Below are positions 51,501 through 59,598 of a DNA stretch of 64,000 nucleotides, piece by piece; the stretch's first letter is position 1; every line of letters starts with the position of its first letter. The stretch is taken from positions 5,190,947 through 5,254,946 of the forward strand of contig OZ007509.1 in assembly GCA_963931865.1 (NCBI GenBank), read 5' to 3'. A program made the position numbers and the translations under genes. A model generated the notes under the pieces. It saw only the letters and a list, made by a program, of their open reading frames with translations, did not search any database and had not been told where the DNA came from. The DNA comes from Axinella damicornis. Its lineage: Eukaryota > Porifera > Demospongiae > Axinellida > Axinellidae.

Positions 51501-54500
51501 CCCGTGGGTACATGTAGCCCCCATGGGTACATGTAGCCCCCATGGGTACACGTAGCTCCCGTGGGTACATGTAGCCCCCATGGGTACACGTAGCCCCCGT
51601 GGGTACATGTAGCCCATGTGTATGTGTAGCCTGTTGGCACATGTAGCCCCCATGGGTACACGTAGCCCCCATGGGTACACGTAGCCCCCATAGGTACATG
51701 TAGCCTCCGTGGGTACGTGTAGCCTGCGGGTACATGTAGCCCCCATCATGCTGAGCTATCACATGGCACAGGATACACTCTGGTCCCTCCCTCCTTCCCT
51801 CCCTCTCCCTCTCACTCGCTCCCTCCCTCCCTCCCTCCCTCCCTCCCTCCCTCCCTCCCTCCCTCCCTCCCTCCCTCCCTCCCTCCCTCCCTCCCTCCCT
51901 CCCTCCCTCCCTCCCTCCCTCCGTCCCTCACTCCCTCCCTCTCCCTCCCTCCCTCACTCCCTCCCTCTCCCTCCCTCCCTCCCTCCCTCCCTCGGATCCT
52001 CCTTCTCTCACTCCCTCCCCCTCTCCGTCCCTCCCCCTCTCCGTCCTTCCCCCCCCCCCCCCCCCCCCCCCTCCCACTTCCTCAGACCTGAATGCTGGTC
52101 CGGTGGGACTTAGTCTTGCCTATGCCATCTCCTTGGCTCCCTCCCTCCCTTCCTCTCCCTCCCTCCCTTCCTCCCTCCCACCTTCCATTCCTCCCTCCCT
52201 CTCCCTCCCTCCCTCCCTCCCTCCCTCCCTCCCTCCCTCCCTCCCTCCCTCCCTCCCTCCCTCCCTCCCTCCCTCCCTCCCTCCCTCCCTCTCCTTCCCT
52301 CCCTCCCTCCCTCCCTTTCTCCCTCCCCCTCTCCCCCTCTACATCAGAGTGAATACACACACGCACACACACTCTCACACATACACAACTAACTGCACTA
52401 TCTCTCTATACTAAGTTCAAGGAACTATCTCTCCACACTTGTAGGAAAGAATCGGCGATAATCCTCAGAGGAGCGTTGATTCGAGCTTGCCACCTCAGCT
52501 TTTACACGGCCTCCATCTCTATTGTCATGTTCCTGGTTTTCACCACCTATGTGGTGACAGGAGGTGAACTGACCCCCAAGAAAGTGTTCACTGCTCTCTC
52601 GCTGCTGATCACACTCCGCCTCACTTCAATTCACTTTTTTATCCAGAATGTGCTTGGTATCAGCGAAGGCTTCGTTGCTACCACACGAATCTCAGTAAGC
52701 ATTATTGGAAGGTACCCTCACATTCTGTCATTACTGGCATGTAGATTACTGGCTAAGGTTACAGTCTTCGCAGACAGACATACAGAATCATCTCTGTTAT
52801 GCATTGAGAGCTATATATGGTCGTATTATTGACAGCTGTCTTCCACATACTATGTTTCTGCACGCTATCATAAGGTGGTTTTTGTCTTGACTTACGTGTG
52901 TGGCATTGCTATTTCGGAGTTCCTCTCATTTGTCGAAAGGAGTCCAACCTTCACGTCTTTTTGCGTCCCTTAAGAAAACTTTTTAATGAGTGGTATAGGA
53001 AGAGTGGAATACTTACAGTCGGAGTCCGTATACTCTAGTACACTGTGGTATACTGTGATGTACTAGCTGTGTAGTTGATGTCCCAGTGGCCATGATGAAA
53101 GTGCAATGCTCACTGTACAGTATATCAGTGTATCACAACACACCTCTGTAGCCCTGTGGATTTTGAAGGTGTTTCAAAATCTGCGGACTGGCCCGTGCAC
53201 CCCAGTGGCCAAAACAACATGGGGCAAGCCCCACACTACATATCATGTCTTGCACAAGCTTGCCCCACAAATGTCATGCAGTATATTATCTGTGGTATAC
53301 TGTCAGTGGTATGTGGTATACTATGGTATACTGTGGTATACTATGGTATACTGTGGTATACTATGGTATACTGTGGTATACTGTGGTATACTATGGTATA
53401 CTATGGTCTACTATGGTATACTATGGTATACTGTGGTATACTGTGGTATACTATGGTAAATCTGTGGTATACTATGGTATACTATGGTATACTGTGGTAT
53501 AGTATACTATGGTCTACTATGGTATACTGTGGTATACTATGGTATACTGTGGTATACTATGGTATACTGTGCTGTGGTATACTGTGGTATACTATGGCAT
53601 ACTGTGGAATCATTTTGAGAGGTGACTTGTAATGTTGCTTGCTGTCATTACCATCAACCTCACAAGACCACTTCTCCCACTCATTGCACTCTCCTAATTT
53701 TCATAACATTACGTGAAAATATCAATATCCCCGAGACCCCTCCTCCTCTCCTTCCCTATCCATCATGAAAGAACTTCCCAAATGAGTCTCCAACCAAAAC
53801 TCTCTTTGCCAGGCCTAGGGTCAGGAATGAGGTTGAAGGGGAATGTCCCTGTACTACATTGTGTATATCCTGCTGTGGTCATTGGTAGGGAGTGGATTAG
53901 AATTGTAACTGCCAAGGATATTTGGCCTTTTGGTTTCCAAGGGAGGAAGTGGTAGCATCCATTATGCCTGTTTCTATGACAACAGTGGTGTTGATAGACT
54001 CTGCATGGTGACACACTGACTCTCAGGAGGTGTTTGCAACTCTGTCCCACGAGCAAAAGTGTCATCCCATATTATTGGGTCAAGTATGGTCTATGTGGAA
54101 CAGCTGTGATGATCCCTCCATTATGTGGAGCAGCTGTCATATAGTCCCTCTGTTGTGTGGAGCAGCTGTGATGGTCCCTCCGTTGTGTGGAGCAGCTGTG
54201 ATAGTCCCTCCATTGTGTGGAGCAGCTGTGATAGTCCCTCCATTGTGTGGAGTAGCTGTGGTTGTCCCTACGTTGTGTGGAACAGGAGTTGTTGGAAGCA
54301 GGCGTGCACCTTGACTGCATGCTGATTATTTTTGCAGATGCGCATTCACTGCTAACATGAATTGGGCGCACCCCGACTCTGAGTAGTGAACACCCATCAT
54401 GGAGTCAGGGTGCTGGAACACCAACCTACTGCTTGAGACTAGAGAAAGGAACTTCTAGCTAAAGTGCATGTGTTTTTGAATCCCACAGGAGAGAGTCTTT

Positions 54501-57500: not shown

Positions 57501-59598
57501 GATACAGGTGAGACAGGTTCTCTAGTCAGAGCGTTACCATAGTTACCGTGTATGAACGAGGAAGGTTGTCAGTGTGTGTTAGCCTCGTTCCCAGGCCCGT
57601 ACCATTTTCGGTTACACGAAGAACGTGGAGTAGTCTCCCTGCCTTCCCGTACTGTAACCGATAGAAAGCTGGGCGGGCCTGGGAACAAGGCTGAGTGTAC
57701 GTGTGTGTGTGTAATTAACAGCTGAAGGGAAATAGTGTCTGCACATGTGCCATTTCGTTGCATATCTGCAACGTGAGACTTTCAGCTTCATGATGTCACA
57801 TCCGGCAATGTCCTTCGGAGATAGGTTATGCGACAGCAGAAAGGGCGGGACAGGGGGAGGTGGGTGGGTGCACCCGGAGGGTGCAAACAGCGTGGCCGTG
57901 TCTGGGCTCCGTGGTAGAAAGGTCTTGGTCGGCACTGGGAAGGCCATATCCGCCGTTTTTGGCATAAATGGACTTAGAAAGGAGCTGTCTTGCCTTGTAG
58001 GGCCTCCATTTCCAGCGTTCATGGTCCGTTTTTTAGCTACGGCAGGTTGGAATTTCTCAGGAGGCTTGATTGCAAGTTCGTTAAGTGGTGAGTGTGGTTA
58101 AGTCACGTATATGCTTAGTATAGCTGAAATTACCTGTGTGAGCAGTTTCGAGCCCAGCAATGCCAGGGAACAGAAATTATGGTATGTTTAAGTGTTCTAT
58201 AGACTGAAAATGACCTAGAGAAAGAAACTTGGGCCCTAAAGAGTTAACTTAAAAGAAGAGTTGACTGTGCTGCCAATTAAGGTTGATAAGTTATCACTCT
58301 GAGTGATTTTCAAGTGTAAATACCCATCTCTGAGTCAGTGTGCCACATCTCTAATTTTAAACGAACTGTAACAAGAAATTGTGCCAAGATGTCTTGTTTC
58401 TCTCACACAAGAAAATCCTTGATCATCTTACAAAGTGGTTCCACTGGAGCTTACAGCATTGTGCTCTTCTAGCTCTCTCTCTCACTGTTTGTGAGAAACT
58501 AGTGGCATCCTGACTCCCCGAAGTGTGTTTACAACTCCCTCCCTTTGTCAGGGTCACGAGGCACTCAATACTGCCCATTCTGCTGACGGCCGAGTGGTGC
58601 ATTCGACTGTAGCCTCGTTCCCAGGCCTGGGAACAAGGCTAATTCGGCTGCTAATCAAGAGGTTGCTTGCTGGTTGCTTGCTGTCACACCATGCCATAGG
58701 AGAGATTCTCTTTCTGAGTCAATTCAGCTCTGCTGTGTTTTCTTTCAGGCGTTATTGCCTGAAATACATGAAGTTCACAAAACCGTCGGTCCGAGGGACT
58801 TGGGTTTAAATAGGCTCTGCCGGCTCTCGTTAGCCACCATCATGGTAACCCCCCCCCCCCCCCCCCCCCCCCAGGGGCAATAAACATAAAATCCTGTTCC
58901 TGTTATCTGAAGCAAGAGTGGCATGGAATAGGATACTAGTGAGGGAGGCACTCCTCTAGCTGATGTGCTAACCTCTTTATTGTGCGAAAGGTACGTAGGA
59001 AGATTGTTGTGTGTGCATGTGTGTGTGTGTAGGCAAGAGTGATGCCATACAGATGAAACTGTTGGTACACAACTGCACCCTTTTTGTCAGCTAGCCATGG
59101 AGAGGAGTTGATTGTCCTACATGGGACAGCTATGTGAGCAGCTATGTCATACTTCGGTCAGAGTCAGTCACGCCCTGAGTGGTCCAAGAGTTGTGAACAC
59201 CATCTTCAAGTCAGTGTGCCACCAATCCAAAAATCACCAACCAAAAATAAAACCTCACAAAACTATGTAATGAGCTTTAAACAATCGTTTGATTCCCACA
59301 GAAAAGAATCGTTGATCATCTTGCAAGGTGGTTTCATTCGAACCTACAACATCCTCCTTGCCTATGTCTCACCTGCATTACTCATGTTCCTGGTGTTCAG
59401 CAGTGTCGCGGGTACCGGTGGCTTCCTGACTCCTCGGAGGGTGTTTACGACTCTCTCACTCATCTTGATCCTGAGGACGTCAACCCTCGGGTTTTTGGCT
59501 CGGTGTGTGTTCTTCATCTCTGAGGCAAATGTGGCATTTACTAGGATACAGGTAGGGTAGGCTGTGGAGAGTTGTAGCTAATGTGGTCCAGACTGTGT

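What the first reader, a model, noticed from the sequence alone, without database searches (positions are those of the whole stretch)
53985..59240. Docking-site/selector RNA pairing system inside the exon 9 cassette
Seen: a conserved element (GAGTTGtaAACACC .. GGAGTCAGGGTGcCACCA .. AACAACACCA) stands before exons 9d, 9e, 9f and 9g, weaker forms stand before 9b, 9c and the dead exon, and one inverted copy stands at 53985-54045 upstream of the cluster. For 9e about 41 of 52 positions agree by hand alignment after reverse complementing. The neighbouring sequence is not inverted, so it is not simply a large inverted duplication. Neither copy 1 nor copy 2 has the element. Known: insect Dscam exon 6 uses one docking site that pairs with a selector before each variant exon. 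Inference: the same logic arose here independently.
Basis: partly seen in the sequence, partly recalled or inferred. Interest (0 to 1): 0.95.

Follow-up and report, generated by a model that had tools for sequence, protein, structure and literature searches.

The report
Antisense exon tags choosing splice variants
In an ABC-transporter gene of an unnamed animal, six of seven alternative versions of one exon are preceded by a whole or partial reverse-complement copy of the exon's core, and by calculation the better copies can pair either with the exons or with one shared intron sequence, a competition that would likely let the cell use one version at a time.

Summary
The elements are real. One intronic sequence (53985-54045) is complementary to elements before exons 9d, 9e, 9f and 9g (duplex -69, -70, -66, -61 kcal/mol; shuffled means -31 to -34). 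Pairing is weak before 9b and the dead exon, at shuffled level for 9c, and no element was found before 9a. Among 3,196 plus-strand windows of the 64 kb this site ranks second against those four elements; the ten other top places are the ten exon-9 cores. Unconstrained folds put one selector on the docking site and several others on exons. Within the array, selectors 9d-9g are at least as conserved as the exons; in single-exon paralogues the element decays and no docking site was found. Best reading: a docking/selector system for mutually exclusive splicing in which the docking site competes with exons for their antisense tags. There are no RNA data, no related species and no compensatory test; shuffling the docking site hardly changes total folding energy; and a neutral relic is not excluded. 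The docking site lies after variant 9a, not before the whole cluster.

The parts
53985..54045 (+). docking element: sense-oriented relative of the exon core, complementary to the intronic tags
   Evidence: profile hit 29.7 bits on the minus strand; second of 3,196 windows; duplexes -61 to -70 kcal/mol with tags 9d-9g
52445..52694 (+). variant exon 9a, 250 nt; no tag found before it; lies upstream of the docking element
   Evidence: sequence with AG/GAAAG and A/GTAAG borders (the coordinates printed are one base low); no profile hit before it
54372..54428 (+). tag of 9b (antisense of exon core, with a deletion)
   Evidence: 23.5 bits; docking duplex -45.2, shuffled -34.5 +- 4.4
54489..54738 (+). 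variant exon 9b, 250 nt
54985..55030 (+). half tag of 9c
   Evidence: 22.9 bits over part of the profile; docking duplex at shuffled level
55072..55324 (+). variant exon 9c, 253 nt
55955..56025 (+). tag of 9d
   Evidence: docking duplex -69.2; on the docking site in two of the three folds that contain both
56079..56328 (+). variant exon 9d, 250 nt
56512..56585 (+). tag of 9e
   Evidence: docking duplex -70.2, own exon -60.5
56646..56898 (+). variant exon 9e, 253 nt
57118..57190 (+). tag of 9f
   Evidence: docking duplex -65.6, own exon -50.2
57255..57507 (+). variant exon 9f, 253 nt
58298..58365 (+). tag of the dead exon (9x)
   Evidence: 21.4 bits; docking duplex -40.4, shuffled -29.8 +- 4.4
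58410..58940 (+). dead exon 9x, with stops and an interruption
   Evidence: no open frame through it
59172..59245 (+). tag of 9g
   Evidence: docking duplex -61.0, own exon -60.8
59302..59551 (+). variant exon 9g, 250 nt

Best explanation
Variant exons 9b to 9g are each preceded by a whole or partial antisense copy of the exon core, and these copies are predicted to compete for one shared intronic docking sequence, so that likely only one exon at a time is freed and spliced in. In more detail (inferred): the docking site is transcribed first, so a later antisense tag can pair with it before the tag's own exon has been made. That pairing would bring the chosen exon near exon 8 and keep its tag off exons, while tags left over pair with exons and hold those back. 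Exon lengths of 250 or 253 nt put the message out of frame if none or two are included. Shown by sequence and calculation: the antisense relation, the complementarity, the competing predicted folds and the array-linked conservation. Not shown: that the RNA folds this way in cells, that the exons are mutually exclusive, or what picks the winner.
For: Docking duplexes -69.2, -70.2, -65.6, -61.0 for tags 9d-9g against shuffled means -30.8 to -34.3, s.d. 4.2-4.8. The docking site is the only non-exonic place among the top 11 of a scan of 3,196 windows. Whole-cluster folds put exactly one tag on the docking site in each of the three folds that contain tag 9d, and several other tags on exons; 0 of 60 folds with a shuffled docking site have any docking/tag pair. 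Docking energy beats own-exon energy in 6 of 7 tags. The tag block outside the exon-like core pairs with the docking site better than shuffles in 9d (P 0.003), 9f (0.023), 9e (0.040). Among 9d-9g the tag is at least as conserved as the exon in 6 of 6 pairs, and less conserved than the exon in 3 of 3 pairs among 9g and its single-exon paralogues; no docking site was found in the paralogue regions.
Against: Tags 9b, 9c and the dead exon's pair weakly or not; 9a has no tag and lies before the docking site. For tags 9d, 9e and 9f one or two exons (9b, 9g) are stronger partners than the docking site. Total folding energy of 53900-56340 is -844.2 and with shuffled docking sites -842.9 +- 3.2, so docking gains little overall, and tag 9d is on its own exon in only 2 of those 60 folds. 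Tags do not prefer their own exon (permutation P 0.64). In the block test another exon fits better than the docking site for 9b and 9f, 9c, 9x and 9g show nothing, and only 9d would survive correction for seven tests. Only 2 of the 6 within-array conservation contrasts reach P < 0.05. No RNA data and no other species. In human U2AF1, docking-like repeats had no effect when mutated (passage of PMC5224494).
Confidence: 0.45

Rival explanations
1. Plain docking/selector choice as in insect Dscam exon 6: only docking/tag pairing matters; the tags' likeness to the exons shows how they arose and pairing with exons has no role.
For: Docking fits the tags better than the own exon in 6 of 7; no own-exon preference (P 0.64); tag 9d seldom sits on its own exon when the docking site is shuffled (2 of 60).
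Against: Exon pairing is nearly as strong, much closer in space and appears in unconstrained folds; it would have to be prevented.
Confidence: 0.2
2. Exon masking only: each tag folds back on its exon and lowers its use; the sequence at 53985 is a dead exon fragment without a role.
For: Local tag-exon folds contain 26 to 42 tag/own-exon pairs for 9d, 9e, 9f, 9x and 9g, with energy z of -3.5, -4.3, -0.6, -4.2 and -7.1; a tag also stands before the single exon of paralogue L020, without a docking site found; the tree does not exclude that the docking site is an exon relative (AU P 0.30).
Against: No own-exon preference; 9b and 9c do not fold so; 4-7% of tag shuffles reach the observed pair counts in the five units; in single-exon paralogues the tag decays; the docking site matches tags in a block where most exons do not.
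Confidence: 0.12
3. Neutral relic: one inverted copy of an exon piece was carried along by tandem duplication; complementarity is left over from common origin and has no function.
For: Complementarity is expected by descent alone, so shuffled controls do not test function; tags of 9b, 9c and the dead exon are decayed; total folding energy hardly depends on the docking site; gene conversion between units could keep tags alike.
Against: Tags are a peak of conservation inside a diverged intron, level with the coding exons, kept in the array and lost outside it.
Confidence: 0.18
4. The tag is a protein-bound intronic splicing element, conserved for its sequence and not for pairing.
For: It lies about 60-125 nt before the 3' splice site and is conserved in sequence.
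Against: Does not explain the reverse complement at 53985 or the antisense match to the exons.
Confidence: 0.05

Closest known systems
Insect Dscam1 exon 6 docking site and selectors (Graveley 2005; described in passages of PMC8042237 and PMC11802352)
   Same: One docking element, many selectors, one before each variant exon, only one pairing possible at a time.
   Different: Here the selectors are antisense copies of the exon core, the docking site lies after the first variant exon, the array has seven intact exons, and nothing is shown at RNA level. In beetles most exon 6 selectors lie partly inside the exons (passage of PMC8042237), the nearest precedent I saw for exon sequence taking part.
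MRP1 exon arrays with competing pairings (Yue et al. 2017, RNA Biol; not held, seen only as cited in PMC6071210)
   Same: Same transporter family (ABCC), tandem exon array, competing RNA pairings.
   Different: PMC6071210 places the docking sites of insect MRP1 downstream of the cluster; here it is upstream of 9b-9g. This gene is MRP4-like. From recall, Yue et al. covered MRP1 in bilaterians; I could not check which exon or which animals.
Stem-arm duplication model for the origin of docking/selector systems (Ivanov and Pervouchine 2018, PMC6071210)
   Same: Predicts that copying one arm of a stem with the exon yields selectors competing for the other arm, as found here.
   Different: The model, as far as I read it (abstract, introduction, discussion, passages), does not derive the arms from the exon itself.
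Chicken beta-tropomyosin exon 6B hairpin (named in a passage of PMC9198270; intron-exon pairing as repressor is recall)
   Same: A hairpin that modulates inclusion of one of two alternative exons.
   Different: One exon, no shared docking site, no array of antisense copies.
Human ATE1 exons 7a/7b, elements R1-R5 (passages of PMC11802352, PMC8052449)
   Same: Competing pairings choose between exons, sensitive to transcription speed.
   Different: Two exons; elements not described as antisense copies of the exons in the passages seen.

Membership tests
Docking site/selector mutually exclusive splicing (broad kind) | tandem array of similar, frame-compatible exons between two constant exons | tested here: met
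   seven intact exons of 250 or 253 nt between exons 8 and 10; copies 1 and 2 have one each
Docking site/selector mutually exclusive splicing (broad kind) | one element complementary to several selectors, so that pairings compete | tested here: met
   four of seven tags pair far beyond shuffles with the same site
Docking site/selector mutually exclusive splicing (broad kind) | a selector at every variant exon | tested here: inconclusive
   strong at 9d-9g, weak at 9b and the dead exon, half at 9c, none found at 9a
Docking site/selector mutually exclusive splicing (broad kind) | exactly one variant exon per transcript | not testable with these tools
   no RNA data; frame arithmetic only
Docking site/selector mutually exclusive splicing (broad kind) | compensatory changes between species, or mutants rescued by compensatory change | not testable with these tools
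   no related genome held; DNA of metagenome relatives not available
Dscam exon 6 subtype | docking site between the constant exon and the first variant exon | tested here: not met
   docking site at 53985 lies after variant 9a at 52445-52694
Tropomyosin-like exon masking | intron pairs with the exon it precedes | tested here: inconclusive
   predicted with energy z below -3 in 4 of 7 units (9d, 9e, 9x, 9g), not in 9b, 9c or 9f; no own-exon preference
ABCC4 (MRP4)-like transporter | closest solved relatives of exons 8-9 are MRP4 | tested here: met
   best eight PDB sequences are MRP4/ABCC4, E 1.1e-26 to 2e-25; next best E 3.3e-13; Pfam ABC_membrane

The most novel reading that the evidence does not exclude
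Variant exons that carry their own antisense switch: an inverted copy of the exon core sits before each exon and toggles between masking exons and docking on a decoy copy of the exon. One decoy can release only one exon, which would make the choice exclusive by itself. It would be a docking/selector system made wholly out of exon sequence, in an animal outside the groups where such systems have been shown.
Probability: 0.3. Interest if true: 0.9.

Novelty: new variant of a known kind. Interest (0 to 1): 0.72.

Why it matters
It would show how a docking/selector system can be born: invert a piece of the exon, copy it together with the exon, and every new exon brings its own selector. It would also address a gap of the Dscam model, what keeps the unchosen exons out, since left-over tags would hold exons back. 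The exon encodes the part of an MRP4-like pump that aligns with MRP4 residues of about 305-386, so exon choice could change what the pump carries (inference). If the host is a sponge, as a weak hint suggests, RNA-guided exon choice would reach beyond bilaterian animals (inference).

Tried and rejected
Simple chance: rejected. High-copy repeat: the 119-bp stretch with the element of 9d matches four places and the docking region one place in the genome, though the tool skips very common words. Large inverted duplication: in the alignment I saw no inverted likeness of the docking site's flanks beyond a tag-sized block. Docking site as exon relic or as inverted tag: profiles gave 21.7 bits (tag) against 18.5 (exon), and the tree did not decide (AU P 0.58 with tags, 0.30 with exons). 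Own-exon co-evolution of tags: not found. Known RNA family: none at gathering score in 52000-60000. First per-segment identities used lax gap costs, and their upstream values of about 70% are chance level; I rely instead. Relatives: 51 proteins match the exon profile, at least four of them the window's own, but the DNA of the others could not be fetched; viral and genome collections gave none. The 12 viral-contig stretches with an exact match to a 17-base pattern were taken as chance and not read. Two protease motif searches meant to place the host gave nine matches that I did not read further and none, which decides nothing. No paper describing selectors that are antisense copies of their own exons turned up in the listings of searches; the library lacks most subscription papers.
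Full report
SETTING. The window lies in an unnamed 226-Mb genome of 120 contigs. It holds three tandem copies of an ABC transporter gene. Exons 8-9 match MRP4/ABCC4 best: E 1.1e-26 to 2e-25 for the best eight PDB sequences, E 3.3e-13 for the next; exon 9 aligns with MRP4 residues of about 305-386. An Antennapedia-type homeodomain query found seven matches, the best 49% identical, which fits an animal without Hox genes such as a sponge; that is a weak inference. 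Copies 1 and 2 have a single exon 9 (17712-17964 and 32500-32749). Copy 3 has 9a, 9b, 9c, 9d, 9e, 9f, a dead exon and 9g between exons 8 and 10. The intact exons are 250 or 253 nt, one more than a multiple of three. From the translations, exon 8 ends inside a codon and exon 9 completes it, so none or two exons 9 shift the frame. Four protein searches of the genome each listed 13 exon-9 places: nine in the window and four single exons elsewhere (lower bounds by the tool's own words).

A profile of the elements before 9d, 9e, 9f and 9g finds 53985-54043 on the other strand with 29.7 bits, E 5.6e-8, and weaker copies before 9b, 9c and the dead exon. Duplex energies with the docking site are -45.2 (9b), -28.6 (9c), -69.2 (9d), -70.2 (9e), -65.6 (9f), -40.4 (dead) and -61.0 (9g); 200 shuffled docking sites for each give means of -26.0 to -34.5 with s.d. 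3.9-4.8. So four of seven elements pair far beyond shuffles, two weakly (about 2.4 s.d.), one not.

The same element matches the minus strand inside the exons. Aligned in sense orientation, exon core, reversed intronic element and docking site are one family; for 9e, TGGTGGCACCCTGACTCC..GGTGTTTACAACTC in the reversed element faces CGGTGGCACCCTGTCACC..GGTGTTTACAACCC in the exon. I call the intronic elements tags: they are antisense copies of the exon core (protein TGGxLTPRRVFTTLSL). In a scan of 3,196 plus-strand windows (81 nt, step 20) against the four good tags, the top 11 separate places are the ten exon-9 cores of the window and, in second place, the docking site (z -6.7). The weakest of those cores (9a, z -3.1) is hardly above the next place (z -3.0), but the docking site is far above it. 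Tags pair with their own exons at -52.4, -26.5, -58.2, -60.5, -50.2, -39.0 and -60.8, and with exons 9b and 9g at up to -74.

COMPETITION. Unconstrained minimum-energy folds give: 53900-56340, docking site on tag 9d (48 pairs); 53900-57520, docking site on tag 9f (47 pairs) with tags 9d and 9e on their own exons (31, 36 pairs); whole 53900-59570, docking site on tag 9d (48), tag 9e on its own exon (36), dead-exon tag on the dead exon (26), tag 9f on exon 9g (35), tag 9g on neither. In 53900-54760 (docking site and 9b alone) the docking site folds on itself and its neighbourhood; tag 9c pairs with exon 9b in the three longer folds. With the docking site shuffled, 0 of 60 folds of 53900-56340 have any docking/tag pair. 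Against my reading, the total energy hardly changes (-844.2 native, -842.9 +- 3.2 shuffled), and in 58 of those 60 folds tag 9d is not on its own exon either, so own-exon masking is not the only fallback. Local folds (tag to exon end) have energy z of -0.5 (9b), -0.4 (9c), -3.5 (9d), -4.3 (9e), -0.6 (9f), -4.2 (dead) and -7.1 (9g) against 150 tag shuffles each. The number of tag/own-exon pairs is reached by 138, 38, 10, 9, 7, 9 and 6 of those 150. I took no account of proteins or of folding during transcription.

WHICH PARTNER DOES THE TAG FIT? In the core (18 to 32 columns per tag), where docking site and own exon differ (60 cells over seven tags), the tag matches the docking site in 36, the own exon in 20 and neither in 4. 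Docking energy is better than own-exon energy in 6 of 7; among eight targets (seven exons and the docking site) the docking site ranks 6th, 7th, 3rd, 2nd, 2nd, 4th and 1st for 9b, 9c, 9d, 9e, 9f, dead and 9g. The tag does not prefer its own exon (diagonal -49.7, off-diagonal -50.5, permutation P 0.64). The tag block beyond the core (AACAACACCA side) pairs with the docking site better than 1,000 shuffles in 9d (P 0.003), 9f (0.023), 9e (0.040) and at the border in 9b (0.050), not in 9c, 9x or 9g. In 9d and 9e no exon does as well there, but for 9b and 9f one other exon does better; with seven tests only 9d would survive correction. This is the most direct evidence for docking proper, and it is modest.

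CONSERVATION. In the alignment of 9d, 9e and 9f the tag stands at 0.80-0.87 mean identity; the stretch before it is at 0.12-0.48 (0.57 in the 20 nt next to it), the stretch after it dips to 0.56, and exon windows lie between 0.48 and 0.87. Tag and exon identities for the six pairs among 9d-9g: 9d-9e 0.89/0.69, 9d-9f 0.83/0.70, 9d-9g 0.81/0.66, 9e-9f 0.83/0.81, 9e-9g 0.79/0.65, 9f-9g 0.71/0.64; all six favour the tag, two with Fisher P below 0.05 (0.0037, 0.048). 9g-L020 0.73/0.86, 9g-L022 0.48/0.84 and L020-L022 0.56/0.85 all favour the exon (P 0.022, 6.6e-9, 1.3e-6). Of the other 12 pairs computed, the six with 9b all favour the exon (by 0.01 to 0.21), the three of 9d-9f with L020 favour the tag slightly (0.01 to 0.11), and the three with L022 favour the exon (Fisher run on 10 of the 21 pairs). 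L019 to L022 are regions of 9.9 kb round the four single exons elsewhere. L020 keeps a recognisable tag (own-exon duplex z -2.2), L022 a poor one (z -1.0), L021 only its edge, and in L019 none was found. The profile search showed no docking site in the four regions. L021 was left out of the counts because its core is gone. Pairs share history, and gene conversion between units could also keep tags alike; 9d looks recombinant, with a 9b-like exon and downstream flank and a 9e/9f-like tag.

MECHANISM. Shown: antisense relation, complementarity, competing predicted folds, array-linked conservation. Inferred: pairing in cells; docking on one tag promotes its exon; left-over tags hold exons back; the order of transcription (docking site, then tag, then exon) gives the docking site first call. 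Unexplained: how 9a, which lies before the docking site and has no tag, is chosen or skipped; how 9b and 9c, with poor tags, are controlled; what picks the winner.

LITERATURE. I saw the abstract, introduction, discussion and passages of PMC6071210, and passages only of PMC8042237, PMC8052449, PMC11802352, PMC5224494 and PMC9198270. PMC6071210 states that tandem exon arrays of MRP genes arose several times in animals and that docking sites of insect 14-3-3zeta, Mhc and MRP1 lie downstream of the cluster, citing Yue et al. 2017, which is not held; from recall that work covers MRP1 in bilaterians including an annelid and amphioxus. PMC8042237 reports that most beetle Dscam1 exon 6 selectors lie partly inside the exons, the nearest precedent I saw for exon sequence taking part. 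PMC5224494 is a warning: selector/docking-like repeats in human U2AF1 had no splicing effect when mutated.

VERDICT. Function likely but unproven.

Noticed in passing
58410-58940: Dead exon 9x still has a tag before it and exon-like ends, but carries stops and an interruption with a long C run; the dead exon's core is the exon closest to the tag profile (25.4 bits).
   Followed up: partly
57580-57695 and 58612-58645: Short inverted-repeat element (TAGCCTCGTTCCCAGGCC .. GGCCTGGGAACAAGGCT) between 9f and the dead exon, with a shortened copy inside the dead exon; looks like a small mobile element.
   Followed up: no
57786-57872: An 87-bp stretch between 9f and the dead exon is 88% identical to 23558-23646 and, more loosely, similar to 39851-39961: a dispersed repeat.
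   Followed up: no
54079-54290: About seven 30-bp tandem repeats (GTGGAGCAGCTGTGATAGTCCCTCCATT) between the docking site and 9b.
   Followed up: no
56329-56427 and 56899-56990: Introns just after the exons are also conserved within two groups (9b/9d and 9c/9e/9f); a second set of paired elements there was not looked for.
   Followed up: no
outside the window: P0011/P0015, P0046/P0047, P0008/P0051: Pairs of different exon-9-like metagenome proteins are listed with contigs of equal length (6,246; 588,325; 1,077,741), a hint of arrays or tandem genes in related animals; same contig inferred from length alone.
   Followed up: no
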